Below, one piece after another: positions 7,375 to 18,302 of a stretch of 64,000 nt of DNA; position 1 is the first letter of the stretch, and each line of letters begins with the position of its first letter. The stretch covers positions 3,371,501-3,435,500 of the forward strand of contig NZ_CP020100.1 of NCBI RefSeq assembly GCF_002056295.1. Reading direction: 5' to 3'. The notes below the pieces were generated by a model. It saw nothing but the letters and a program-made list of their open reading frames with translations, ran no database searches and was not told the DNA's origin. This DNA comes from Halopseudomonas phragmitis (lineage in GTDB: Bacteria; Pseudomonadota; Gammaproteobacteria; Pseudomonadales; Pseudomonadaceae). The position numbers were made by a program, and so were the translations under genes.

Positions 7375-9966
7375 ATGAGTGAACCGAGTACCAAACGGGA
7401 AGACCTCAACACTGAACTGGAAGACCTGGTCGCCACCAGCGACACGGGTGCACGCAAACCCCGGGGGATCCCCGGCAAATTGCTTGTCAGCATTGCGGCC
7501 GCCTGGTCGCTTTTTCAATTATGGATTTCCTCGCCGCTGCCGTTCATGGTCGGCTTCGGCGTGTTTAACAGCACCGAAGCTCGCTCCATTCACCTGGCTT
7601 TCGCGGTGTTCCTGGGCTTCATGGCCTTCCCCGCCTTCAAGCGTTCCCCCCGTGACCGGGTACCGCTGCTGGACTGGATTCTGGCGCTGCTGGCTGCGTT
7701 CTGCGCAGCCTATCTGTTTCTGTTCTACACCGACCTGGCCCGCCGCCCGGGCAGCCCGACCCAGGTCGATGTAATAGTCGCCGTCACTGGTCTGGTGCTG
7801 CTGCTGGAGGCCACCCGCCGGGCGCTGGGGCCGCCGTTGATGATCGTCGCCCTGGTGTTCATCGTCTATTCGCTGGCCGGCCCGCACATGCCGGGGATTC
7901 TGGCGCACCGGGGCGTGAGCCTGGAGGCGCTGACCAACCATCAATGGCTCACCACCCAAGGGGTATTCGGGATTGCCCTGGGGGTGTCGACCAGTTTCGT
8001 GTTTCTGTTCGTGCTGTTCGGCTCACTGCTGGATAAGGCTGGTGCCGGCAATTACTTCATCAAGGTAGCCTTCTCGCTGCTTGGTCACTACCGAGGCGGG
8101 CCGGCCAAGGCAGCCGTAGTGGCCTCGGGCATGACCGGGCTGATCTCCGGCTCCTCGATCGCCAATACCGTGACCACCGGCACCTTCACCATCCCAATGA
8201 TGAAGCGGGTTGGCTTCCCGGCGGAAAAGGCCGGCGCAGTCGAGGTGGCGTCATCGGTCAATGGCCAGATCATGCCGCCGGTCATGGGCGCCGCCGCCTT
8301 TCTGATGGTCGAGTATGTCGGCATTTCCTATGTCGAAGTGATCAAGCATGCCTTCCTGCCGGCGCTTATTTCCTATATCGCCCTGGTCTACATCGTCCAC
8401 CTGGAAGCGATGAAGGCCGGCATGCAGGGGCTGCAGAGCAGCAATCCGCAGCGCCCGCTGCTGCGCAAGCTGATCGGTTTTCTCACCGGCCTGCTGTTGC
8501 TCATGGGGCTGTCGTTTGCGGTCTATTACGGACTGGGCTGGCTCAAGCCGCTGCTCGGCGACGCCGCCAGCTGGGTAATTGCCGGTGGCCTGGCAGTGGT
8601 TTATGTCAGTCTGTTGAAACTCGGCGCACGCTATCCGGAACTGGAGCTGGACGACCCCAACTCGCCAGTGGTCAAACTGCCGCAGACCAAGCCTACGGTA
8701 ATGTCCGGGCTGCACTACATCCTGCCGGTCATCGTGCTGATCTGGTGCTTGATGGTCGAGCGCCTGTCACCCGGCCTGTCGGCCTTCTGGGCCACGGTGT
8801 TCATGATTGCCATCATCCTTACCCAGCGCCCGCTGATGGCTCTGTTCCGAGGACGCAGCAAGGTGGTCAACGACCTGCTGCACGGCCTGGATGATCTTTG
8901 GCAGGGTCTGGTATCAGGCGCGCGCAACATGATCGGCATCGGTATTGCCACTGCTACCGCCGGGATCATCGTCGGTGCGGTATCGCAGACCGGGGTCGGT
9001 CTGGTACTGGCCGACCTGGTGGAAATCCTGTCGATGGGCAACCTGATGCTGATGCTGGTACTGACGGCTGTGCTCAGTCTGATTCTCGGTATGGGCCTGC
9101 CAACCACCGCCAACTACATCGTGGTCTCGGCCCTGCTGGCACCGGTGATCGTCACCCTCGGCCAGCAGAACGGTCTGATCGTACCGCTGATCGCCGTACA
9201 TCTGTTCGTGTTCTATTTCGGCATTATGGCTGACGTTACCCCTCCCGTAGGATTGGCCTCATTCGCAGCAGCGGCAGTGTCCGGCGGCGACCCCATCCGC
9301 ACCGGCTTTCAGGCCTTCTACTACAGCCTGCGTACTGCGGCGTTACCATTCCTGTTCATCTTCAACACCGACCTGCTGCTGATCAACGTCGACTTCTGGC
9401 ACGGGATACTGATCTTCATCGTCGCGACCATCGCCATGCTGATCTTCGCCGCTGCGACCCAGGGCTGGCTATTGGTACGCAGCCGCTGGTACGAAAATCT
9501 GCTATTGCTGCTGGTGGCCTTCACCCTGTTCCGCCCGGGGTTCTGGATGGACATCATTCATGATCCCTACGAGTCGGTGCCACCGGCGCAATTGGCCGAA
9601 GTGCTGAACCGGGTCGATGACAACAGTTACCTGCGCATGCAAGTGGCTGGTGAAGACGATATCGGCAACCCCCGTACTTTCTTCCTGCTGGTCCCGGTAC
9701 CCGACGGCACTGACGGCCAGGAGCGGCTGGATAACCTGGGCTTGGGTCTGATTCAGGAAGATGAACGCACTCTGGTCGATATGGTCAACTTCGGTAGCCT
9801 GGCCGCGGAACTGGGTTTCCAGTTCGATCAGGAAATCATCGAGGTCATGGCCCCGGTTGATCGCTGGGCCAAGGAATGGATGTGGATACCGGGCTTCCTG
9901 CTATTTGGGCTGATTGTCGGCCTGCAATGGCTGCGCCAGCGTGCCCATGCCCCGGCACTGCCCTGA
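7375..9966 (+). CDS. TRAP transporter permease, fused small and large subunits, with DUF3394-like C-terminus
   Basis: This 863-residue inner-membrane protein has a hydrophilic N-terminal tail (about 50 residues), a four-helix DctQ-like part, and then the large DctM-like transport domain. Conserved patches include SGMTGLISGSSIANTVTTG, SSVNGQIMPPVMGAAAF and GMGLPTTANYIV. It ends with a periplasmic-looking segment and one last helix, as in the DUF3394 extension of fused TRAP permeases. It should import the ligand of the TAXI protein using an ion gradient. An in-frame GTG three codons earlier is an alternative start. The UspA-like gene follows after 9 bp. Confidence 0.92.
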   Translation: MSEPSTKREDLNTELEDLVATSDTGARKPRGIPGKLLVSIAAAWSLFQLWISSPLPFMVGFGVFNSTEARSIHLAFAVFLGFMAFPAFKRSPRDRVPLLDWILALLAAFCAAYLFLFYTDLARRPGSPTQVDVIVAVTGLVLLLEATRRALGPPLMIVALVFIVYSLAGPHMPGILAHRGVSLEALTNHQWLTTQGVFGIALGVSTSFVFLFVLFGSLLDKAGAGNYFIKVAFSLLGHYRGGPAKAAVVASGMTGLISGSSIANTVTTGTFTIPMMKRVGFPAEKAGAVEVASSVNGQIMPPVMGAAAFLMVEYVGISYVEVIKHAFLPALISYIALVYIVHLEAMKAGMQGLQSSNPQRPLLRKLIGFLTGLLLLMGLSFAVYYGLGWLKPLLGDAASWVIAGGLAVVYVSLLKLGARYPELELDDPNSPVVKLPQTKPTVMSGLHYILPVIVLIWCLMVERLSPGLSAFWATVFMIAIILTQRPLMALFRGRSKVVNDLLHGLDDLWQGLVSGARNMIGIGIATATAGIIVGAVSQTGVGLVLADLVEILSMGNLMLMLVLTAVLSLILGMGLPTTANYIVVSALLAPVIVTLGQQNGLIVPLIAVHLFVFYFGIMADVTPPVGLASFAAAAVSGGDPIRTGFQAFYYSLRTAALPFLFIFNTDLLLINVDFWHGILIFIVATIAMLIFAAATQGWLLVRSRWYENLLLLLVAFTLFRPGFWMDIIHDPYESVPPAQLAEVLNRVDDNSYLRMQVAGEDDIGNPRTFFLLVPVPDGTDGQERLDNLGLGLIQEDERTLVDMVNFGSLAAELGFQFDQEIIEVMAPVDRWAKEWMWIPGFLLFGLIVGLQWLRQRAHAPALP

Positions 9967-9975
9967 GGAGGATGC

Positions 9976-10404
9976 ATGTACAACAAGATCCTGTTACCCA
10001 TCGATCTTAACCACAAGGCCTCCTGGGACCGCGCCCTGCCGACCGCACTAGTGCTGTGCAAAACCTATGACGCTTCGCTGCATGTGGTCACGGTGATGCC
10101 TGATTTCGGCCTGCCACTGGTAGGCGGCTTCTTTCCCAAGGAGTTCACCGATCAGGCAAAGAAAGCCCTGACCGACCAGTTCAAAGAGTTCATCAAGGAG
10201 CATGTGCCCAAGGACATCAAGGTCCAGCGCATTGTGGTTGACGGCAAGCCCTATGAGGCCATTCTGCGGGTCTCGAAGAAGCTCAACGTCGACCTGATCG
10301 TCATGGCCTCACACAAACGCAAGCGTCTGGAGGAGTACCTGCTCGGCACCAACGCCATGCGGGTGGTCCAGCAGTCGAAGAAGTCGGTGATGATCGTGCG
10401 TTAA
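9976..10404 (+). CDS. UspA-family universal stress protein, TRAP-associated
   Basis: The 142-residue cytosolic protein begins MYNKILLPIDLNHKASWDRA, typical of the UspA fold. It is translated from a strong AGGAGG site 9 bp after the TRAP permease. USP proteins are known partners of TRAP systems; TeaD of the Halomonas ectoine transporter binds ATP and regulates uptake. Here the expected G-2x-G-9x-G-S/T nucleotide motif is degenerate: ASHKRKRLEEYLLGTNAMRV keeps only the last Gly-Thr. ATP binding may therefore be lost. A regulatory role for the TRAP system is inferred from the operon. Confidence 0.88.
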   Translation: MYNKILLPIDLNHKASWDRALPTALVLCKTYDASLHVVTVMPDFGLPLVGGFFPKEFTDQAKKALTDQFKEFIKEHVPKDIKVQRIVVDGKPYEAILRVSKKLNVDLIVMASHKRKRLEEYLLGTNAMRVVQQSKKSVMIVR

Positions 10405-10455
10405 AGAAGCGCTGGTTAATTGCGTAGCCCGGTTGGCGCTGACCTGCTCTGGACC

Positions 10456-10471
10456 CGGCACGCACCTTGCT
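10456..10471 (+). promoter_or_regulatory. Sigma-54 type promoter of nasST
   Basis: CGGCAC-N5-TTGCT has GG (10457-10458) and GC (10469-10470) exactly 10 bases apart, one mismatch from the TGGCAC-N5-TTGC consensus. The predicted start, about 12 bases downstream of the GC, falls at the first base of the leader hairpin. Sigma-54 control fits nitrogen regulation through NtrC. Confidence 0.65.
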
Positions 10472-10483
10472 TGCTTCTCGACA

Positions 10484-10523
10484 GGGCATCAATGGCGATG
10501 CCCATTAACGACAACGGCGTCGT
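10484..10523 (+). ncRNA. ANTAR-target dual-hexaloop leader before nasS
   Basis: Hairpin P1 is GGGCATC-AATGGC-GATGCCC (10484-10503) and hairpin P2 is ACGAC-AACGGC-GTCGT (10508-10523), joined by a short linker. Both loops have six bases with A at position 1 and G at position 4, the known recognition pattern of ANTAR RNA-binding proteins such as NasR and EutV. The 3' strand of P2 is also the base of the following terminator, so P2 and the terminator exclude each other. NasT, encoded just downstream, is the likely ligand. Confidence 0.72.
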
Positions 10524-10566
10524 GCTGACAGATCGGTAATACCGAGGCTGCGGCACGGCGTTTTTT
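10518..10566 (+). terminator. Attenuating terminator before nasS
   Basis: CGTCGTGC (10518-10525) pairs with GCACGGCG just before a run of six T (10561-10566). An inner hairpin, TCGGT-AAT-ACCGA, sits above an internal loop. The base of this stem uses the same bases as the 3' strand of leader hairpin P2. Confidence 0.6.
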
Positions 10567-10585
10567 ATTGCCTGTGGAACATGAC

Positions 10586-11803
10586 ATGCAAACGGATACC
10601 CCAAAGCAGTCCGACCCTCTGGCCTGGGTTGCGGGCAACGACGCCCCGGAAAAACCGGTACTCAACATCGGTTTTATGCCCTTGACCGACTCAGCTTCGC
10701 TGATTGTTGCCGCCACCCAGGGATTTGCCCAGCAATACGGCCTAAGCATCAACCTCAAACGACAAAATTCCTGGGCAAGCTTGCGTGACAGGCTGCTCAG
10801 CGGTGAACTGGATGCCGCTCAGGGCCTGTACGGCCTGGCCTATGGCATTCACTTGGGGCTGGGTTGCCCTGCCACCCCCATGGCGGTGCTCATGGGGCTG
10901 AACCAGAACGGCCAGAGCATCAATCTGTCACGCGCAATGCTTGAGACCGGCGTGACCAGCGGTGAGGCACTGGCGCGCAAAGCGCACCACGATGGGGCAA
11001 AATTGCGTCTGGCACAGACCTTCCCCACCGGCACCCATGCCATGTGGCTGTATTACTGGCTGGCCGCCCACGGCGTCCACCCGCTGCGCGATGTCGAGAC
11101 CCTGGTGGTGCCTCCTTCGCAGATGGTCGAGCACCTGCGAGCTGGACGTATCGACGGTTTCTGTGCCGGCGAGCCCTGGGGCGCCTGCGCGATTGCCGAA
11201 GGGATGGGCTTCACCCTGGCGACCAGTCAGTCAATCTGGCCGGATCATCCGGAGAAAGTGCTATGCACCACCGCTGCATTCGCCGAACAGTACCCTAACA
11301 CCGCCCGCGCCCTGGTCATGGCTCTGCTCGATGCCAGTCGGTTCATTGATGAAAACGCTGCCAATCGCGCCGGTACCGCGCAACTGATCAGCGCCAGCGA
11401 GTATGTCGACGCTCCCCTGGGTGCCCTGCTCCCACGTTTTCAAGGAGAGTATGATGACGGTAACGGGCGAGTCTGGCAGGATAGCCACCCGCTGCGTTTC
11501 CATGCTGGCGGTGCGGTCAACCAGCCCTACCTGTCCGACGGCATCTGGTTCATGACCCAGTTCCGGCGCTGGGGCCTGTTGCGCCACGATCCTGACTATC
11601 TGGCCGTGGCTCGTCAGGTTCAGCAGACCGGCCTGTATCATGAGGCAGCCTCGGCGCTGGGCATTGCAACAGCCCCTGGCGACATGCGCAGCGCCTGCTT
11701 GATGGACGGCATAGACTGGGACGGTAGTAACCCCCATGACTATGCCCATGGTTTCAAGCTTCATGCCCTGAGTGATGACAAGACGTTATGCGAATCCTGC
11801 TGA
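10586..11803 (+). CDS. nasS: Nitrate sensor NasS
   Basis: The 405-residue protein is related to the NrtA/TauA-type nitrate-binding proteins (PVLNIGFMPLTDSASLIVAA near the N-terminus). It lacks a signal peptide, as expected for the cytosolic sensor NasS. In the characterised systems NasS holds NasT inactive and releases it when nitrate or nitrite binds. An earlier in-frame TTG exists, but the ATG at 10586 gives the usual N-terminus. The end overlaps nasT by 16 bp, so the two are translationally coupled. The gene lies behind a leader with ANTAR-type hairpins, suggesting autogenous control. Confidence 0.9.
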   Translation: MQTDTPKQSDPLAWVAGNDAPEKPVLNIGFMPLTDSASLIVAATQGFAQQYGLSINLKRQNSWASLRDRLLSGELDAAQGLYGLAYGIHLGLGCPATPMAVLMGLNQNGQSINLSRAMLETGVTSGEALARKAHHDGAKLRLAQTFPTGTHAMWLYYWLAAHGVHPLRDVETLVVPPSQMVEHLRAGRIDGFCAGEPWGACAIAEGMGFTLATSQSIWPDHPEKVLCTTAAFAEQYPNTARALVMALLDASRFIDENAANRAGTAQLISASEYVDAPLGALLPRFQGEYDDGNGRVWQDSHPLRFHAGGAVNQPYLSDGIWFMTQFRRWGLLRHDPDYLAVARQVQQTGLYHEAASALGIATAPGDMRSACLMDGIDWDGSNPHDYAHGFKLHALSDDKTLCESC

Positions 11804-12363
11804 TCAACGATACCGCCCGCAAGGTCGGTCGCCTGAGCGAGGCACTGCGAGACGCCGGGTTCGAGGTGTTCGACGAATCCGGCCTGTCAATCGACCTGCC
11901 GGCCCGGGTGCAGAGCTGCAAGCCGGATGTCATTCTGATCGACAGTGACTCTCCCGGACGCGACGTACTGGAACAACTATGCCTGGTCAGTCGCGACCAG
12001 CCCAAGCCGATCGTCATGTTCACCGACGAACAGGACCCGGCCATCATGCGCCAGGCCATTCAGGCCGGGGTCAGCGCCTATATCGTCGAAGGTATCAACA
12101 GTACCCGACTCAAGGCCATTCTCGACGTGGCCCAGGCCCGTTTCGAAACTGACCAGCAGTTGCGCGCCGAACTGCAGGCCCGCGAGCAGCAACTCAACGA
12201 GCGCAAGCGGATCGAAAAGGCCAAGGGGCTGTTGATGACCATGAAACAGTGCAGCGAACCCGAGGCCTACACCCTGATGCGCCGCCAGGCCATGGCCCGC
12301 CAGCAGAAGCTGATCCAGGTCGCCGAGCAGATCATCGCCATGCACGAGATGCTCAACGATTAG
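11788..12363 (+). CDS. nasT: ANTAR-domain antiterminator NasT
   Basis: The 191-residue protein has a receiver-like N-terminal domain (1-120; MRILLINDTARKVGRL, with acidic Asp52 and Asp54 in IDSDSPG) and a linking helix. A C-terminal ANTAR domain follows (about 128-189), with the hallmark RIEKAKGLLM (141-150), EAYTLMRRQAMA and VAEQII. ANTAR domains bind paired hexaloop RNA hairpins and block terminators. Three such leaders lie in this locus. It is expected to be held by NasS when nitrate is absent and to switch on nasA and nirB transcripts when freed. Confidence 0.95.
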   Translation: MRILLINDTARKVGRLSEALRDAGFEVFDESGLSIDLPARVQSCKPDVILIDSDSPGRDVLEQLCLVSRDQPKPIVMFTDEQDPAIMRQAIQAGVSAYIVEGINSTRLKAILDVAQARFETDQQLRAELQAREQQLNERKRIEKAKGLLMTMKQCSEPEAYTLMRRQAMARQQKLIQVAEQIIAMHEMLND

Positions 12364-12426
12364 TGCAACGGCACTGCACACCACCTCAACACCTCCCTAT
12401 ACCGTCATCGCGAGACAAACCAACCC

Positions 12427-12442
12427 TGGCACACTTACTGCA
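12427..12442 (+). promoter_or_regulatory. Sigma-54 type promoter of nasA
   Basis: TGGCAC-ACTTA-CTGCA has GG (12428-12429) and GC (12440-12441) 10 bases apart, close to the sigma-54 consensus. The predicted transcript start coincides with the first base of the dual-hexaloop leader, about 12 bases downstream. Confidence 0.7.
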
Positions 12443-12453
12443 TATATCTCCTG

Positions 12454-12493
12454 CAGGTAACCAACGGCGGTTGCCTGAACAGACAACGACGTC
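12454..12493 (+). ncRNA. ANTAR-target dual-hexaloop leader before nasA
   Basis: P1 is CAGGTAACC closed by GGTTGCCTG around the loop AACGGC (12454-12477). After a 4-base linker, P2 is GAC-AACGAC-GTC (12482-12493). Both loops have A1 and G4. P2 is short (3 bp), and its 3' strand overlaps the base of the terminator stem. A bound NasT that stabilises P2 would therefore open the terminator next to its T-run. Confidence 0.72.
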
Positions 12494-12540
12494 ATCCCCG
12501 ACCCGGACCAAGTCCGGGGTCGGGGGTGGCGTTTTTTTTT
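12490..12540 (+). terminator. Attenuating terminator before nasA
   Basis: A stem of about 19 bp (5' arm 12490-12508, 3' arm 12512-12531, one bulged G) has a 3-base loop and is followed by nine T (12532-12540). It is the strongest terminator in the window. It sits between the nasT stop and nasA, so without antitermination nasA and the downstream kinase would hardly be transcribed. Confidence 0.88.
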
Positions 12541-12601
12541 GCCGCAATGCTGCAGGCAAAAGCCCCCAAAGCCTGATTTTGCGTACGTTGAGGGATTGCA
12601 C

Positions 12602-13813
12602 ATGAATACAAGCTTCTGGAAAGCCGGCCACGCACCCACGCTGTTCGCCGCTTTTCTCTACTTCGATCTGAGCTTCATGGTCTGGTACGTGCTCGGCCCC
12701 CTTGCGGTGCAGATCGCCACCGACCTGGGCCTGACTGCACAGGAACGGGGCATGATGGTAGCCACGCCGATCCTGGCTGGTGCAATTCTCCGACTGCTAC
12801 TTGGCTTTCTGGCTGATCGCACCTCACCCAAGACTGCCGGCATCTTCGGCCAGGTAGTCGTAATTCTGGCCCTGCTCGCCGCCTGGACGCTGGGTATCAA
12901 CAGTTATGAGCAGGCGCTGTTGCTTGGCCTGGGCCTGGGCTTTGCCGGGGCGGCCTTCGCCGTCGCCCTGCCGTTGGCCTCGCAATGGTACCCGCCGGAG
13001 CACCAGGGCAAAGCCATGGGCATCGCCGGCGCCGGCAACTCCGGTACCGTGCTGGCTGCATTGTTCGCCCCAGGCCTGGCCTATCTGTTCGGTTGGCAGA
13101 ACGTGTTCGGCTTAGCCCTGATCCCTCTGGTGGCAACCCTGCTTATCTTCACTCTGGTGGCCCGTAACGCTCCACAACGTCCCAAGCCCAAGGCTGCCCG
13201 TGACTATCTGATGGCACTGAATGATCGTGACAGCTGGTGGTTCATGTTCTTCTACAGCGTTACCTTCGGTGGCTTCATCGGCCTAGCCAGCGCCCTGCCT
13301 GGCTACTTCAATGACCAATACGGGCTCGATCCAGTGATCGCCGGCTACTACACCGCTGCCTGCGTCATGGCCGGCAGCCTGATGCGCCCGCTCGGCGGTG
13401 CCCTGGCCGACCGCATCGGCGGTATTCGTTCCCTGTTGTTCATGTACTCGGTGGCCGCCATCTGCATAGCGCTGGTGGGCTTCAACCTGTCCAGCTCGTT
13501 CGCCGCACTGGCCCTGTTCGTTGCTGCCATGCTCGGCCTGGGGGCTGGCAACGGCGCGGTTTTCCAGTTGGTACCCCAGCGCTTCCATCGTGAAATCGGG
13601 GTCATGACAGGCCTGATCGGCATGGCTGGCGGGGTCGGCGGCTTCGTGTTGGCGGCCGGCCTGGGCACCATCAAACAGCATACCGGCGACTACCAGCTTG
13701 GCCTGTGGCTGTTCGCGGCACTCGGCGTACTGGCCCTGATCGGTCTGAGCGGCGTCAAGCGCCGCTGGCGGACCACCTGGGGCTCTTCGGCCGTCACCAC
13801 GGCCAGGGTCTGA
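12602..13813 (+). CDS. nasA: Nitrate/nitrite transporter, MFS (NarK/NasA family)
   Basis: The 403-residue, 12-helix inner-membrane protein belongs to the nitrate/nitrite porter family. The N-terminus (HAPTLFAAFLYFDLSFMVWY) and the segments GLGFAGAAFAVALPLASQWY and LGLGAGNGAVFQLVPQRF match the Gly-rich nitrate signature regions of helices 5 and 11. The genetic context (nasST, nirBD, nasC) points to nitrate uptake for assimilation. The start follows a GAGGG site. The leader upstream carries a sigma-54 promoter, ANTAR hairpins and a terminator. The PP2C-kinase gene begins 2 bp after the stop. Confidence 0.93.
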   Translation: MNTSFWKAGHAPTLFAAFLYFDLSFMVWYVLGPLAVQIATDLGLTAQERGMMVATPILAGAILRLLLGFLADRTSPKTAGIFGQVVVILALLAAWTLGINSYEQALLLGLGLGFAGAAFAVALPLASQWYPPEHQGKAMGIAGAGNSGTVLAALFAPGLAYLFGWQNVFGLALIPLVATLLIFTLVARNAPQRPKPKAARDYLMALNDRDSWWFMFFYSVTFGGFIGLASALPGYFNDQYGLDPVIAGYYTAACVMAGSLMRPLGGALADRIGGIRSLLFMYSVAAICIALVGFNLSSSFAALALFVAAMLGLGAGNGAVFQLVPQRFHREIGVMTGLIGMAGGVGGFVLAAGLGTIKQHTGDYQLGLWLFAALGVLALIGLSGVKRRWRTTWGSSAVTTARV

Positions 13814-13815
13814 GC

Positions 13816-15474
13816 ATGAGCCTGCAACTGCGCATTGACGAGGCCAGCGCCGCTGGTCCACGCAAGGAAAATCAGGATGCTGTGCGGGTGGTTACCCCCG
13901 CACCGCAGCTGGCGGCCAGCAAGGGCCACCTGCTGGCCCTGGCCGATGGCGTGAGCCAATGCAGCGATGGCGGCCTGGCCGCCCGTGCCACCCTACAGGC
14001 TCTGGCGCTGGACTACTACTCCACACCGGAAACCTGGTCGGTCACTCAGGCGCTGGAGCGTCTGCTGACCGCCCACAATCGCTGGTTGCGAGCCAATGGC
14101 GGTGGCCTGCCGCTGCTGACTACCCTGACCGCCCTGGTGCTGCGCGGGCGTCGTTATACCTTGGCCCATATCGGTGACTGCCGGGCCTATCTGCTGCGCA
14201 ACGGTCGACTGCGCAAGCTGACCAATGAGCATGTCTGGGAACAACCGGGCATGGAACACGTGCTCAAACGGGCGATGGGATTGGATGAACACCCGCTGAT
14301 CGATTACCTGGATGGCGAACTCGACGAAGGCGATCAGCTGTTGCTGGTCAGCGATGGGGTATGGGCCTATCTCAACGACCAGGCAATCCATGACACCCTG
14401 GCTGCCAACGACGCCCCCGGCCGCTGTCAGCGGCTGATCGATCTGGCCCTGGCCAATGGCGGGCAGGACAATGCCAGCGCACTGCTGGTCGGTATCGACA
14501 CACTGCCTGACAGCAGCCTCGACGACGCCCTGCAACCGGCTGACGAGCGCGCCCTGCCGCCGCGCCTGAAACCCGACCAGCAGTTCGAGGGCTGGCATGT
14601 CCAGCGGGAACTGGGCGAAACCCGCCAGTCCCTGCTGTACCGGGTCAAGGATGGCCTCGGTCAGCCCTGGCTGCTTAAGACCCTGCCCCCTCAGCGTCAG
14701 GATGAACCACAGGCCTGCCGCGAACTGCTGCAGGAGGAATGGTTCCTGCGTCGGGTGGCCGGGCAATCGGTCCCTGAGCTGCATCCGCTGCCCGAACGTC
14801 AGCACCATTACTACGTGATGCGCGAGTACGCCGGACAGACCCTGGAGCAGCACAAGCGCGAGCACGGACTCTGGAGTCTGGCACTGTTCCAGCAACTGGC
14901 ACCGCAACTGATCAAGGCCGTCGGCCTGCTGCACCGACGCAACCTGCTGCACCGCGACATCAAGCCGGACAATTTGCATCTGGGCGATGACGGCGTGCTG
15001 CGCCTGCTCGATTTCGGCCTTGCTTTCTGCCCCGGCTTGTCCCAGTGGCAGACCGGCAACCCGCCTGGCACTCCCAGTTTCATTGCTCCGGAAGCCTTTG
15101 CCGGGGCCGAACCCAGCCCGCAACAGGACCTGTATGCGACCGGCGTCAGTCTCTATTACTTGCTGACCGGGCATTACCCCTACGGCGAGATCGAGGCCTT
15201 CCAGCGCCCCCGCTTTGGCCGCCCCGCCCCACCCAGTCGCTATCGCCATGATTTGCCGGGCTGGGTCGACGAATGCCTGCTCAAGGCTCTGGAACCCGAT
15301 CCTGATAAACGCTACGAAACCGCCGAAGAGTGGTTATTGGCTCTGGAACAGGCCGAGCGCCTGCCCCAGCCCAGCCGCCCTTTGATCGAACGCGAGCCGC
15401 TGGTGGTTTGGCGCGCCGTGGCCCTGACCTCACTCGCACTCAATCTGGTGCTGTTGATGCTATTGCTTCGCTGA
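13816..15474 (+). CDS. PP2C phosphatase / Ser-Thr protein kinase fusion with C-terminal membrane anchor
   Basis: The 552-residue protein fuses two opposing activities. Residues 1-230 form a PP2C-type phosphatase with metal-binding Asp21 (KENQD), Asp44 (ADGVS), Asp121 (GDCRA), Asp180 (SDGVW) and Asp218 (GGQDN). Residues 257-515 form a Hanks-type kinase with Lys288, HRDIKPDN (379-386), DFG (399-401) and GTPSFIAPE. The glycine loop is weak (LGETRQSLLY). One membrane helix ends the chain (about 530-551), leaving the enzymes cytosolic. It starts 2 bp after nasA, and a similar gene occupies the same place in Pseudomonas aeruginosa. The target is unknown; NasA is a natural candidate by context. Confidence 0.93.
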   Translation: MSLQLRIDEASAAGPRKENQDAVRVVTPAPQLAASKGHLLALADGVSQCSDGGLAARATLQALALDYYSTPETWSVTQALERLLTAHNRWLRANGGGLPLLTTLTALVLRGRRYTLAHIGDCRAYLLRNGRLRKLTNEHVWEQPGMEHVLKRAMGLDEHPLIDYLDGELDEGDQLLLVSDGVWAYLNDQAIHDTLAANDAPGRCQRLIDLALANGGQDNASALLVGIDTLPDSSLDDALQPADERALPPRLKPDQQFEGWHVQRELGETRQSLLYRVKDGLGQPWLLKTLPPQRQDEPQACRELLQEEWFLRRVAGQSVPELHPLPERQHHYYVMREYAGQTLEQHKREHGLWSLALFQQLAPQLIKAVGLLHRRNLLHRDIKPDNLHLGDDGVLRLLDFGLAFCPGLSQWQTGNPPGTPSFIAPEAFAGAEPSPQQDLYATGVSLYYLLTGHYPYGEIEAFQRPRFGRPAPPSRYRHDLPGWVDECLLKALEPDPDKRYETAEEWLLALEQAERLPQPSRPLIEREPLVVWRAVALTSLALNLVLLMLLLR

Positions 15475-15556
15475 GTTCCCTGGGGGTGTCGTCCCTCACT
15501 CGACGGCATGCCTGGTACCCCCCCATGTTGGGTCGAGGTACGACATCCCCAGGAAC
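15475..15556. repeat. Imperfect long hairpin after the kinase gene
   Basis: Arms at 15475-15494 and 15538-15556 are inverted copies with three differences (GTTCCCTGGGGGTGTCGT versus the complement of ACGACATCCCCAGGAAC). Inner arms CTCGAC/GTCGAG also pair. It begins directly after the kinase stop and may end the nasA-kinase transcript or be a dispersed palindrome, although no clear T-run follows. Confidence 0.55.
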
Positions 15557-15591
15557 CTTTTTCACCCAACCGGGCCACAAGCCCAACAAAC

Positions 15592-15606
15592 GCACCATTG
15601 CAGTGC
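15592..15606 (+). promoter_or_regulatory. Candidate NtrC-binding site upstream of nirB
   Basis: GCAC-CATTGCA-GTGC is an exact match to the GCAC-N7-GTGC core of NtrC enhancer sites. It lies about 77 bp upstream of the -24 element of the nirB promoter, a normal enhancer distance. A second half-site (GGTGCAC, 15621-15627) lies closer. The role is inferred from pattern and position. Confidence 0.55.
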
Positions 15607-15681
15607 AAAACGCCACAATAAGGTGCACAAGAAGAGCCCGGCAAGTGGCTCAAGCCATTGAAAAACAATAAAAATATAAAT

Positions 15682-15697
15682 TGGCACACTGTGTGCA
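15682..15697 (+). promoter_or_regulatory. Sigma-54 type promoter of nirB
   Basis: TGGCAC-ACTGT-GTGCA has GG (15683-15684) and GC (15695-15696) 10 bases apart. It is preceded by an A/T-rich stretch and an NtrC-like site. Transcription should begin near 15707, upstream of the ANTAR hairpins. Confidence 0.7.
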
Positions 15698-15728
15698 TTG
15701 CTATTACCAGCAATTCACATACAACGGT

Positions 15729-15767
15729 CCTGTCAACGGCGACAGGTCGTTTCCTGACCGATCAGGA
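15729..15767 (+). ncRNA. ANTAR-target dual-hexaloop leader before nirB
   Basis: P1 is CCTGTC-AACGGC-GACAGG (15729-15746) and P2 is TCCTG-ACCGAT-CAGGA (15752-15767), with a 5-base linker. Both six-base loops carry A1 and G4. A terminator follows 10 bases later. An alternative pairing, AGGAC (15764-15768) with GTCCT (15781-15785), could open the terminator's 5' arm but would also compete with P2, so the exact switch is unclear. Confidence 0.75.
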
Positions 15768-15777
15768 CCTGGACAAA

Positions 15778-15818
15778 GGCGTCCTACCGCGCGAGCGGTG
15801 GGGCGCCTTTTTTGTTTT
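15778..15818 (+). terminator. Attenuating terminator before nirB
   Basis: A 13-bp stem including two G-U pairs (15778-15790 with 15795-15807) closes a GCGA loop and is followed by TTTTTTGTTTT. It ends 28 bp before the nirB start, so it can only act as a leader attenuator. Confidence 0.88.
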
Positions 15819-15845
15819 ACGCTCATTACAACGGAGCACAACAGG

Positions 15846-18302
15846 ATGCAAAAGCTCAAGCTGGTGATGGTTGGTAACGGCATGGCCGGGGTACGAACCC
15901 TGGAAGAACTGCTGAAACTGACGCCCGACCTCTACGAGATCACCGTGTTCGGCGCCGAGCCGCACCCCAACTACAACCGGATCCTGCTGTCACCGGTCCT
16001 GGCCGGGGAACAGACCTTCGAGGAAATCATCCTCAACCCGCTGTCCTGGTACGAGGAAAACGGCATTACCCTGCACACCGGCCGCAAGGTGGTGAAGATT
16101 GATCGGCGCAACCGCAAGGTGATCGCCGACGACGGCACCGAAGCTGAATACGACCGTCTGCTGCTGGCCACCGGCTCCAACCCGTTCATTCTGCCGATTC
16201 CAGGCAACGATCTGGACGGTGTGATCGGCTACCGCGATATCGCCGATACCGAAACCATGATGGAAACCGCCAAGACCCACAAGCATGCGGTGGTAATTGG
16301 TGGCGGCCTGCTTGGTCTGGAAGCGGCCAATGGTCTGAAACTGCGCGGCATGGATGTGACCGTGGTGCATATCGGTGACTGGCTGCTGGAGCGCCAGCTC
16401 GACCGCACCGCTGGCGAACTGCTGCAGAAGTCGCTGGAAGATCGCGGCCTCAAATTCCTGCTGCCGCAGTTCACCAGCGAGCTGCTGGACGATGGCGACG
16501 GCCGTGTCTGCGGCGTCAAGTTCAAGGATGGCAGCGTGATTCCAGCCGATCTGGTGGTGATGGCGGCCGGGATCCGGCCCAACACCGAACTGGCGGAAAG
16601 CGCGGGTCTGGCCTGCAACCGCGGGATTTTGGTCAGCGACACCCTGCAAACCTACGACCCGCGCGTCTACGCTATCGGCGAGTGCGCCAATCATCGCGGC
16701 ATTGCCTACGGCCTGGTAGCCCCGCTGTTCGAGCAGGCTAAGGTCTGCGCCAACCATCTGGCGATGCTCGGCTATGGCCGCTACGAGGGTTCGATCACCT
16801 CGACCAAACTCAAGGTCACCGGTATCGACCTGTTCTCCGCTGGCGAGTTCATGGGCGATGACAGCACTGAGCAGATCACCCTGTCCGATCCGATTGGCGG
16901 GGTCTACAAGAAGCTGGTGATCAAGGATGACATTCTGGTCGGCGCCTGCATGTACGGCGACACTGCCGACGGTGGCTGGTATTTCCGGATGGTCAAGGAG
17001 CGCCACAACATCCGCGAGATTCGTGACCACCTGATGTTCGGCGAGAACGCTATCGGCGACACCGGCCACCAGGGCCAGAACAAAGCCGCCAACATGCCTG
17101 ACGATATGGAGGTATGTGGCTGCAACGGGGTGTGCAAGGGCACCATCGTCAAAGCGATTCAGGAACACGGGCTGTTCAGTGTCGATGATGTGAAGAAACA
17201 CACCAAGGCTGGCAGTTCCTGTGGTTCCTGCGTGGGCCTGGTGGAACAGATCGTGATCAATACCGTGGGCGGTGCAGCCGATGTGAAGCCCAAGAGCGAG
17301 AAGCCGGTCTGCGGCTGTACCGACCTGAATCACGGCCAGGTGCGCAAGGCGATTCGCGAGCATCACCTGACCAGCATTCCGGAGGCGATGGCTTTCATGG
17401 AGTGGCGCACGCCGAACGGCTGTGCGACCTGCCGTCCGGCACTGAACTATTACCTGATTTCGACCTGGCCGGGTGAGGCCAAGGATGATCCGCAGTCGCG
17501 CTTCATCAACGAGCGGGCCCATGCCAACATCCAGAAGGATGGCACCTATTCGGTGGTGCCGCGGATGTGGGGCGGCGTGACCAATGCCTCGGAACTGCGG
17601 CGGATTGCCGATGTGGCGGACAAGTACAACGTGCCGATGGTCAAGGTGACCGGTGGTCAGCGGATCGATCTGCTGGGCATCAAGAAAGAGGACCTGCCCA
17701 ATGTCTGGAAGGATCTGGACATGCCCTCGGGGCATGCCTACGGCAAGTCGATTCGTACCGTGAAGACCTGTGTGGGCAGCGAGTTCTGCCGTTTCGGTAC
17801 GCAGAACTCGACGCAGATGGGGATTGATCTGGAGCACGCCCTGTTCAACATGTGGTCGCCGCACAAGGTGAAGCTGGCAGTTTCGGGTTGCCCGCGCAAT
17901 TGTGCCGAGTCGGGCATCAAGGATGTGGGGATCATCGGGGTGGATTCCGGCTGGGAGCTGTATATCGGCGGCAACGGCGGGATCAAGACCGAGGCCGGTG
18001 AGTTCTTTGTGAAGGTGAAGACCGAGGATGAGGTGATGGAATACTCGCTGGCGTTCCTGCAGCTCTACCGTGAGGAGGCCTTCTATCTGGAGCGTACGGT
18101 GCACTATATGCAGCGGGTCGGTATGGAGCACATCAAGCAGGCGGTACTGGAGGATGCTGAACGGCGCAAGGCGCTGCATGAGCGGCTGCTGTTCTCGTTG
18201 TCGTTCGAGCAGGATCCGTGGAAGGAGCGGATCGAGAAGGAAGACTTGAAACAGGAATTCCGCCGCATTGCGGTACAGCAGTTGGAAGGAGTGAACGCAT
18301 GA
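15846..18302 (+). CDS. nirB: Assimilatory nitrite reductase [NAD(P)H], large subunit
   Basis: The 818-residue cytosolic enzyme reduces nitrite to ammonium with NAD(P)H. In order it has an FAD/NAD(P)-binding reductase part (VMVGNGMAGV near residue 7; VVIGGGLLGLEAANGL), two BFD-like [2Fe-2S] modules (Cys clusters about 423-470 and 489-540), and a sulfite/nitrite reductase half-domain. The siroheme-[4Fe-4S] ligands are CVGSEFC (about 641-647) and SGCPRNC (about 680). The start at MQKLKLVMVGNGMAG fits the family. A longer upstream frame would run through the leader terminator and is rejected. nirD overlaps its stop by 4 bp. Confidence 0.97.
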   Translation: MQKLKLVMVGNGMAGVRTLEELLKLTPDLYEITVFGAEPHPNYNRILLSPVLAGEQTFEEIILNPLSWYEENGITLHTGRKVVKIDRRNRKVIADDGTEAEYDRLLLATGSNPFILPIPGNDLDGVIGYRDIADTETMMETAKTHKHAVVIGGGLLGLEAANGLKLRGMDVTVVHIGDWLLERQLDRTAGELLQKSLEDRGLKFLLPQFTSELLDDGDGRVCGVKFKDGSVIPADLVVMAAGIRPNTELAESAGLACNRGILVSDTLQTYDPRVYAIGECANHRGIAYGLVAPLFEQAKVCANHLAMLGYGRYEGSITSTKLKVTGIDLFSAGEFMGDDSTEQITLSDPIGGVYKKLVIKDDILVGACMYGDTADGGWYFRMVKERHNIREIRDHLMFGENAIGDTGHQGQNKAANMPDDMEVCGCNGVCKGTIVKAIQEHGLFSVDDVKKHTKAGSSCGSCVGLVEQIVINTVGGAADVKPKSEKPVCGCTDLNHGQVRKAIREHHLTSIPEAMAFMEWRTPNGCATCRPALNYYLISTWPGEAKDDPQSRFINERAHANIQKDGTYSVVPRMWGGVTNASELRRIADVADKYNVPMVKVTGGQRIDLLGIKKEDLPNVWKDLDMPSGHAYGKSIRTVKTCVGSEFCRFGTQNSTQMGIDLEHALFNMWSPHKVKLAVSGCPRNCAESGIKDVGIIGVDSGWELYIGGNGGIKTEAGEFFVKVKTEDEVMEYSLAFLQLYREEAFYLERTVHYMQRVGMEHIKQAVLEDAERRKALHERLLFSLSFEQDPWKERIEKEDLKQEFRRIAVQQLEGVNA

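What the first reader, a model, noticed from the sequence alone, without database searches (positions are those of the whole stretch)
10456..10566. NasS/NasT operon appears to control itself through an ANTAR-type leader
Upstream of nasS I see a sigma-54-like promoter, two hairpins with six-base loops (AATGGC, AACGGC; A1 and G4 in both), and a terminator ending in six T. The base stem of the terminator reuses the 3' strand of the second hairpin. NasT is the ANTAR protein encoded behind it. This predicts positive autoregulation of nasST by antitermination, a feedback loop beyond the usual NasT targets (nitrate and nitrite reductase operons).
Basis: partly seen in the sequence, partly recalled or inferred. 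Interest (0 to 1): 0.72.

Follow-up and report, generated by a model that had tools for sequence, protein, structure and literature searches.

The report
Self-regulating RNA switch before nasST
A short RNA switch in front of the genes for a nitrate-sensing regulator pair has every sequence feature of the switches this regulator works on elsewhere, so the pair very probably turns up its own production when nitrate is present, although this has not been tested in cells.

Summary
Between usp and nasS lie a sigma-54-type promoter (10456-10471), two hairpins with A1/G4 six-base loops (AAUGGC 10491-10496; AACGGC 10513-10518) and a terminator with six T (10561-10566) whose 5' arm reuses the second hairpin's 3' arm. 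Rfam narK RNA (RF03032) matches above its gathering score (53.2 bits); a promoter-free model built only from narK leaders finds it at 38.8 bits, E 3e-9. Across Pseudomonadaceae, hairpin 2 precedes nasS in 52 of 69 loci examined, with overlapping terminator in 51 of those 52 and covariation in hairpin 1. In 40 of the 52 genomes NasT is the only ANTAR protein found, so NasT is the likely reader and the circuit closes on itself. Limits: no binding or expression data; this genome also encodes a NasR-like ANTAR protein; only 4 of 13 loci of the window's genus keep both A1/G4 loops; hairpins are absent in the Stutzerimonas loci seen. New member of a known kind, placed before its own regulator. I found no description of nasST autoregulation in papers I could reach; key ones are not held.

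The parts
9976..10404 (+). universal stress protein gene upstream (follows TRAP-transporter genes); context
   Evidence: Pfam PF00582
10456..10471 (+). sigma-54-type promoter, -24 GG at 10457-10458, -12 GC at 10469-10470; transcription start inferred near 10481-10483, just before hairpin 1
   Evidence: sequence; one mismatch to TGGCAC-N5-TTGCT; inside the RF03032 match. TGGC[AG][CT]-N5-TTGC[AT] lies within 230 nt before nasS in 57 of 69 unnamed and 77 of 79 named loci; the window's own site begins CGGC and is not among the 57
10484..10503 (+). hairpin 1 (P1), 7 bp stem GGGCATC/GATGCCC, loop AATGGC 10491-10496 (A1, G4)
   Evidence: folds; covariance models; stem covariation across the family
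10508..10523 (+). hairpin 2 (P2, antiterminator), 5 bp stem ACGAC/GTCGT, loop AACGGC 10513-10518 (A1, G4)
   Evidence: folds without the terminator; present in 52 of 69 loci
10516..10566 (+). intrinsic terminator; 5' arm contains the 3' arm of hairpin 2 (10519-10523); stem about 10516-10562, T run 10561-10566
   Evidence: minimum-energy fold; same overlap in 51 of 52 loci with hairpin 2
10586..11803 (+). nasS, nitrate/nitrite-binding sensor; ATG 10586 chosen by comparison with relatives (the listed ORF begins at TTG 10568)
   Evidence: ORF; Pfam NMT1_2; the name NasS rests on gene order and relatives
11788..12363 (+). nasT, response-regulator-like domain plus ANTAR RNA-binding domain; overlaps the end of nasS by 16 nt
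   Evidence: Pfam Response_reg and ANTAR
12428..12495 (+). second ANTAR leader, before the NarK-type nitrate transporter gene (12539-13813)
   Evidence: RF03032, 50.5 bits
15670..15807 (+). third ANTAR leader (Rfam P11, the NalA-type leader) before nirB
   Evidence: RF00625, 96.9 bits; same architecture found by the scan

Best explanation
The leader is an ANTAR-type transcription attenuator that places nasST under NasT's own control. Under nitrogen limitation sigma-54 polymerase (probably with NtrC) starts at about 10482. Without nitrate NasS holds NasT, the 3' arm of hairpin 2 pairs downstream, the terminator forms and transcription mostly stops before nasS. With nitrate or nitrite NasS releases NasT, which binds the two A1/G4 hexaloop hairpins, holds hairpin 2 in its antiterminator form and lets polymerase read into nasS-nasT. 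More NasS and NasT are then made, so nasST is induced together with narK and nirB, which have leaders of the same kind. Shown here: the anatomy, the terminator/antiterminator overlap, family-wide conservation and hairpin-1 covariation, and NasT as the only ANTAR protein found in 40 of 52 leader-bearing genomes. Inferred: sigma-54/NtrC initiation, NasT binding, nitrate dependence, and the net positive sign of the loop.
For: RF03032 above gathering score at the site; of 13 further loci with a nasS leader given to Rfam, 7 pass the threshold at that leader, among them Azotobacter vinelandii (43.7 against 43.2 bits), 6 do not. Model R1, built without promoter from 24 leaders that all precede narK: 38.8 bits, E 3.1e-9 at 10481-10523; best match in the window that is not a leader 14.5 bits. 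On 69 loci (231,561 bases) all 59 R1 matches at E <= 0.1 lie before nasS (38) or after nasT (21), none elsewhere. Hairpin 2 in 52 of 69; overlapping terminator in 51 of 52. Hairpin 1 covariation, 36 distinct windows: 59 cells changed on both sides against 24.7 in shuffles, score 0.451 against 0.174 (0 of 500), best at slide 0. Named genomes: hairpin 2 in 59 of 79, terminator in 58 of 59 (several are the same genomes as in the unnamed set). In 40 of 52 leader-bearing genomes NasT is the sole ANTAR protein found. Energies fit a default-off switch: hairpin 2 alone -3.1, terminator -29.0 kcal/mol. Published: NasT acts by antitermination on NalA (PMC12830290, passages); NasS-NasT dissociates on sensing nitrate/nitrite (PMC3795266, abstract start as listed); nasS and nasT fall strongly in a P. 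stutzeri ntrC mutant (PMC8443478, passage).
Against: No binding, read-through or expression data for this leader. The genome encodes a second ANTAR protein (NIT-ANTAR, NasR type) that might serve the same leader. Only 4 of 13 loci in the window's genus keep A1/G4 in both loops. 17 of 69 loci lack hairpin 2, including 6 of 6 of genus g15 and 5 of 5 of g5, so the loop is dispensable. 31 of 69 nasS loci give no R1 match at E <= 0.1. Hairpin 2's stem hardly varies, and the selection rule required its core, so it gives no independent covariation. In one search one of five measures (number of pairs with a double change, 8) is not exceptional: 66 of 500 shuffles reach it. No strong NtrC site was seen near the promoter (nearest inside usp at 10044, 2 mismatches; the pattern is commoner in shuffles than in the window). 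In Paracoccus nasT and nasS were transcribed with all nitrogen sources tested (PMC5424462, passages). In P. putida KT2440 nasT rose 7.25-fold on nitrogen limitation in wild type and 4.00-fold, not significant, in an rpoN mutant (PMC7801951, passages), so dependence on sigma-54 may not be complete.
Confidence: 0.85

Rival explanations
1. The leader is an ANTAR attenuator, but in this species it is read mainly by the NasR-type protein (NIT plus ANTAR, 429 aa) encoded about 60 kb upstream of it, so nasST is controlled by NasR rather than by itself.
For: A NIT-ANTAR protein is present and sits before an nrt-type nitrate ABC transporter operon. Between them lie, read by eye, a sigma-54-like site and a terminator, and a GGGC-AACGGC-GTCC hairpin, so the loops resemble each other and cross-talk is plausible. 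9 of the 11 genus loci with hairpin 2 come from genomes with two ANTAR proteins.
Against: In 40 of 52 leader-bearing genomes NasT is the only ANTAR protein found, so the leader does not need NasR. In genus g15 5 of 6 genomes have a second ANTAR protein and yet 6 of 6 lack the nasS hairpins. The presumed NasR leader before nrt is matched neither by Rfam at gathering score nor by R1, so it differs from the nasS/narK kind.
Confidence: 0.1
2. The terminated short leader RNAs (nasS, narK and nirB) matter mainly in trans, as decoys that hold free NasT, so the nasS leader is chiefly a NasT sponge.
For: Termination would release RNAs of about 85 nt that keep hairpin 1 intact; the nirB leader is listed in Rfam as an sRNA (RF00625). 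Sequestration of an ANTAR protein by an sRNA is known in Gram-positive eut systems (recalled, not checked here).
Against: In the terminated RNA hairpin 2 is consumed by the terminator, which should weaken NasT binding. All leaders counted lie directly before nasS, though they were sought only there.
Confidence: 0.05
3. The structure is the ordinary terminator of the upstream TRAP/usp genes, and the hairpins are incidental.
For: It lies between usp and nasS on the same strand and ends in a good T run.
Against: A sigma-54-like promoter lies between usp and the hairpins; two covariance models match; hairpin 1 covaries; the same leader precedes nasS in other genera, where no usp match was found beside nasS in the stretches held.
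Confidence: 0.01

Closest known systems
narK RNA (Rfam RF03032)
   Same: Sigma-54 promoter followed by a 7-bp hairpin with an AACGGC-type loop and a conserved GAC-loop-GTC segment; above gathering score here and at 7 nasS leaders among 15 loci searched, 13 of which have such a leader
   Different: The Rfam name refers to narK; the model pairs only hairpin 1 and leaves hairpin 2 unpaired. Here the downstream gene is nasS, first gene of the regulator pair.
NalA / P11 leader of nirBD (Rfam RF00625), a NasT target in Pseudomonas
   Same: Same window, same architecture (two A1/G4 hexaloop hairpins with an overlapping terminator); NasT antitermination reported (PMC12830290 passages)
   Different: Controls the structural operon; RF00625 scores only 20.8 bits on the nasS leader (gathering 70)
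EutV/NasR/AmiR dual-hairpin ANTAR targets
   Same: Two hairpins, hexaloops with A1 and G4, second hairpin overlapping the terminator (PMC3369931 passages; PMC7496416 passages)
   Different: The leaders named in those passages precede metabolic genes; here the leader directly precedes the sensor/antiterminator pair
amiECBRS operon with AmiR/AmiC
   Same: Design precedent for a self-controlled ANTAR regulator: the leader is upstream of amiE and AmiR regulates the operon amiECBRS (PMC3369936 passages); that R and C of this name are amiR and amiC is recalled
   Different: The ami regulators ride on the structural operon; nasST has a dedicated leader and promoter
Paracoccus nasTS
   Same: Homologous NasS/NasT pair; nitrogen control at the nasT promoter through an NtrC site (PMC5424462 passages)
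   Different: Gene order nasT-nasS, and no ANTAR leader before nasT is described in the passages read. Likewise 20 of 20 loci fetched from other families of the same order have nasT-nasS order, and none shows two A1/G4 hairpins followed by a T run in the 260 nt before nasT.

Membership tests
narK RNA RF03032 | score at or above the curated gathering threshold (43.2 bits) | tested here: met
   53.2 bits, full length 1-72
narK RNA RF03032 | resemblance not due to the promoter letters alone | tested here: met
   promoter-free model R1 from narK leaders: 38.8 bits, E 3.1e-9
ANTAR dual-hairpin antiterminator | two hairpins of at least 3 bp with six-base loops, A at 1 and G at 4 in both | tested here: met
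   7 bp AAUGGC and 5 bp AACGGC
ANTAR dual-hairpin antiterminator | second hairpin mutually exclusive with an intrinsic terminator | tested here: met
   minimum-energy fold; 51 of 52 loci with hairpin 2, the window's own among them
ANTAR dual-hairpin antiterminator | hairpins conserved by compensatory change | tested here: inconclusive
   met for hairpin 1; hairpin 2 is nearly invariant and uninformative
ANTAR dual-hairpin antiterminator | both A1/G4 loops conserved in near relatives | tested here: inconclusive
   4 of 13 in the genus keep both; 36 of 69 loci pass the sequence rule with at least 3 bp in hairpin 1, two of them with G instead of A at position 1 of loop 2 (L070, L102)
NasT target (NasT autoregulation) | NasT is the ANTAR protein available to act on it | tested here: inconclusive
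   NasT is the sole ANTAR protein found in 40 of 52 leader-bearing genomes, but the window's own genome has two
NasT target (NasT autoregulation) | NasT binds the RNA and read-through depends on NasT and nitrate | not testable with these tools
   needs experiment
sigma-54 / NtrC promoter | -24/-12 element upstream of the leader | tested here: met
   CGGCACGCACCTTGCT, one mismatch; stricter form TGGC[AG][CT]-N5-TTGC[AT] in 57 of 69 unnamed and 77 of 79 named loci
sigma-54 / NtrC promoter | NtrC enhancer sites upstream | tested here: inconclusive
   nearest site inside usp with 2 mismatches; over the window fewer matches than in shuffles

The most novel reading that the evidence does not exclude
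In Pseudomonadaceae the nitrate regulator pair became self-amplifying: gene order nasS-nasT together with an ANTAR leader before nasS makes NasT's release by nitrate raise the amount of both NasS and NasT. This could give nitrate assimilation a threshold or memory (hysteresis), tuned by how leaky the terminator is. Some lineages (Stutzerimonas, genus g5) lack the loop, which makes them natural controls. In genomes with NasR, two nitrate sensors might feed one self-reinforcing switch.
Probability: 0.3. Interest if true: 0.65.

Novelty: new member of a known kind. Interest (0 to 1): 0.5.

Why it matters
In the papers whose passages I read, NasS-NasT is described as a sensor that reports nitrate to reductase and transporter genes. 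If its own operon is under the same antitermination control, the sensor's level becomes part of the response: little regulator without nitrate, more with it, gated by nitrogen starvation through sigma-54. That changes how dose response, induction speed and memory should be modelled, and it makes nasS or nasT mutant phenotypes harder to read because the mutation also changes regulator supply. The wide presence with lineage-specific absences, and presence in Azotobacter vinelandii, a species in which nasST was studied genetically, make the prediction easy to test.

Tried and rejected
A first alignment of genus leaders took the wrong strand for minus-strand loci and was discarded; leaders were re-extracted.

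The 7044 match of model R1 (14.5 bits) lies inside a coding gene with broken pairs: chance. The match of RF00625 (P11) to the nasS leader (20.8 bits) is far under its gathering score and is not used as membership.

A consensus scan for sigma-70 promoters found none in 9900-16000, which gives no support for a second promoter before nasST; it does not exclude one. NtrC-site scan: nothing convincing. The loose sigma-54 pattern (78 of 79) was rejected as a count, because in some rows (L108, L151, L152, L170) the match printed is terminator-like; one search repeats the count with a stricter pattern.

Rows dropped before counting: L007 was left out of all leader counts because its contig ends inside nasS. 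In one search, 1 of 80 named loci (L106) had no upstream sequence. In one search, L006 and L087 were probably given a wrong hairpin 1 by the sequence rule, and L078 was shifted by the aligner; all were kept in the counts. The hairpin-1 counts use different rules and are not interchangeable. The 56 family loci outside the genus are not a random sample: 16 came as best NasT matches and 40 were picked by me for spread over genera; named and unnamed sets share genomes.

Beyond the family (order level, 115 genomes, 27 other-family genomes with a NasT match) I fetched 20 loci; 7 were not fetched. None of the 20 has such a leader.

Papers asked for but not held, so not read: Wang 2012 (A. vinelandii NasT), Nie 2024 (c-di-GMP and NasT), PMC11387622, the 2017 paper that I recall as the source of the narK RNA, Gutierrez 1995 (nasST), Romeo 2012 (NalA). 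Whether any of these already reports nasST autoregulation is therefore unknown. The statement that I found no description rests on searches (listings) and the passages read; no paper was read in full.

Full report
What is there. The window carries a nitrate-assimilation cluster on the + strand: usp, nasS, nasT, a NarK-type transporter, a PP2C/kinase gene, nirB, an assimilatory nitrate reductase and a uroporphyrinogen-III methyltransferase. The unconstrained minimum-energy fold is the terminator form, in which the 3' arm of hairpin 2 belongs to the terminator stem (-42.6 kcal/mol, z -5.2). When the downstream half is left out, both hairpins form (-19.1 kcal/mol).

Is it more than chance? Rfam's narK RNA family matches 10457-10523 at 53.2 bits, over its gathering score of 43.2. 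Because that model includes the promoter, I built a promoter-free model, R1, from 24 distinct leaders (one of them the window's own narK leader), all 24 of which have narK as the first match downstream. It finds the nasS leader at 38.8 bits, E 3.1e-9, second in the window only to the narK leader; the best match that is not a leader has 14.5 bits, and the nirB leader only 12.4. A scan for two A1/G4 hexaloop hairpins followed by an overlapping terminator gave the nasS and nirB leaders on both strands of the window, and nothing in 20 simulated 64-kb sequences (one strand each). The promoter motif by itself is not rare.

Relatives. In the family, 232 of 298 sampled genomes have NasT at E <= 1e-50. 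I examined 69 nasS loci with upstream sequence: 13 of the window's genus and 56 of eight other genera, the latter partly best matches and partly picked for spread. Hairpin 2 is present in 52 of 69, and in 41 of 69 a hairpin-1 loop also meets a sequence-only rule, 36 of them with at least 3 bp. In 51 of the 52 the fold sends the 3' arm of hairpin 2 into a terminator that ends at a T run; L070 had no T run in reach. Hairpin 1 windows (36 distinct) covary: 77.3% of cells paired against 59.9% in shuffles, 59 cells changed on both sides against 24.7, 31 further pair types against 21.7, score 0.451 against 0.174, each 0 of 500; the fifth measure, pairs with a double change, is 8 against 7.0 and is reached by 66 of 500. 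Every slid version is much lower. A separate count gave 201 of 252 paired cells against a mean of 154.4 and a maximum of 177 in 2000 arm shuffles. R1 on these 69 loci gave 59 matches at E <= 0.1: 38 before nasS, 21 after nasT, none elsewhere. Some of the 21 were training sequences; the 38 were not. 31 of 69 nasS loci had no R1 match at that threshold. Rfam's own model passed its threshold at the nasS leader in 7 of 13 further leader-bearing loci given to it, and in neither of two without hairpin 2.

Named genomes. A scan for NasS gave the best 80 loci of a capped list; several are the same genomes as above. Of 79 with upstream sequence, 59 have hairpin 2, 37 also a hairpin 1 of at least 3 bp by the rule used there, and 58 of the 59 have the overlapping terminator. 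A sigma-54 site of the form TGGC[AG][CT]-N5-TTGC[AT] lies before nasS in 77 of 79, and in 57 of the 69 unnamed loci. Azotobacter vinelandii has both hairpins and the terminator, with a slightly deviant promoter TGGCGCATCGGTTGCC. The seven loci whose record titles say Stutzerimonas (L119, L123, L132, L138, L168, L172, L184) have the promoter but no hairpin 2.

Results against a simple story. In the window's own genus hairpin 2 and terminator are kept in 11 of 13 loci, but both A1/G4 loops only in 4 of 13 (L003, L004, L009, L013). By eye, L011 has lost the hairpins, L005 keeps the promoter and one hairpin, and L015 and L016 show no clear sigma-54 site. Hairpin 2 is missing in 5 of 5 loci of genus g5 and 6 of 6 of g15. 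So the loop is widespread but dispensable, and hairpin 1 tolerates drift where hairpin 2 does not.

Who reads it? The window's genome has two ANTAR proteins: NasT, and a 429-aa NIT-ANTAR protein of NasR type outside the window, about 60 kb upstream of the leader, placed before an nrt-type nitrate ABC transporter operon. Between them I see by eye a sigma-54-like site and a terminator, and a GGGC-AACGGC-GTCC hairpin; Rfam and R1 do not match there. NasR could act on the nasS leader here. Across the family, however, 40 of the 52 genomes whose nasS leader has hairpin 2 show exactly one ANTAR protein, NasT. Among the 17 genomes without hairpin 2, 8 show one and 9 show two or three. This is the main argument for NasT acting on its own leader.

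Boundary. In 20 of 20 loci fetched from other families of the same order the gene order is nasT-nasS. None has two A1/G4 hairpins followed by a T run in the 260 nt before nasT, while 12 of 20 have a sigma-54-like match there by the loose pattern. The self-targeting leader and the nasS-nasT order thus go together in Pseudomonadaceae, within this sample.

Mechanism. Published work gives the parts: NasS-NasT dissociates on sensing nitrate/nitrite (PMC3795266, abstract start as listed, passages); NasT antiterminates the NalA leader of nirBD, which is started from a sigma-54/NtrC promoter (PMC12830290, passages); ANTAR proteins bind two A1/G4 hexaloop hairpins of which the second excludes a terminator (PMC3369931 and PMC7496416, passages). 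In P. stutzeri A1501 (the named Stutzerimonas loci here lack the hairpins; A1501 itself was not examined) nasS and nasT fall strongly in an ntrC mutant (PMC8443478, passage), as expected if nitrogen control acts at the promoter and the leader adds nitrate control. In P. putida KT2440 nasT rose 7.25-fold on nitrogen limitation, and 4.00-fold, not significant, in an rpoN mutant (PMC7801951, passages). Applied here, nasST should be an AND gate of nitrogen limitation and nitrate. Since both NasS and NasT rise, the loop is positive only while nitrate keeps NasT free. Basal NasT must come from leaky termination or an unseen promoter; a sigma-70 consensus scan found none in 9900-16000.

Known or new. 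The element is a member of the narK RNA / ANTAR leader kind. Self-control of an ANTAR regulator has a design precedent in amiECBRS, the operon whose leader AmiR reads (PMC3369936, passages). Sigma-54 promoters for the NasT gene group have been predicted (PMC12316311, passages). I found no statement that nasST is autoregulated by antitermination in searches or in the passages read, but several key papers are not held.

Noticed in passing
L105 7060-7200 (minus strand; same genome, about 50 kb before the window): Possible fourth ANTAR-like leader (by eye a sigma-54-like site and terminator; GGGC-AACGGC-GTCC hairpin) between a NasR-type NIT-ANTAR gene and an nrt-type nitrate ABC transporter operon; not matched by Rfam or R1. 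Two ANTAR proteins coexist in this genome.
   Followed up: partly
window 15670-15861: The P11/NalA leader overlaps the start of the longest nirB reading frame (TTG 15681); the NirB model begins at residue 61 of that frame, so the true nirB start probably lies downstream of the leader's terminator.
   Followed up: no
nasS upstream regions of L006, L008, L010, L012, L014: By eye a hairpin at the hairpin-1 position is kept, but its loop has lost the A1/G4 six-base form while hairpin 2 stays nearly invariant: relaxed need for the first hairpin?
   Followed up: partly
nasS upstream regions of Stutzerimonas loci (for example L138, L168, L184; L089-L093, L099): Sigma-54 promoter present but hairpin 2 and its terminator not found: a possible natural loss of the predicted feedback.
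   Followed up: partly
L186-L205 (other families of the order): Gene order is nasT-nasS in 20 of 20, the reverse of Pseudomonadaceae, with a sigma-54-like match in 12 of 20 but no ANTAR leader before nasT.
   Followed up: yes
L105 3700-3943 (minus strand): A cobalamin riboswitch (RF00174, 88.7 bits) lies downstream of the nrt genes in the same genome.
   Followed up: no
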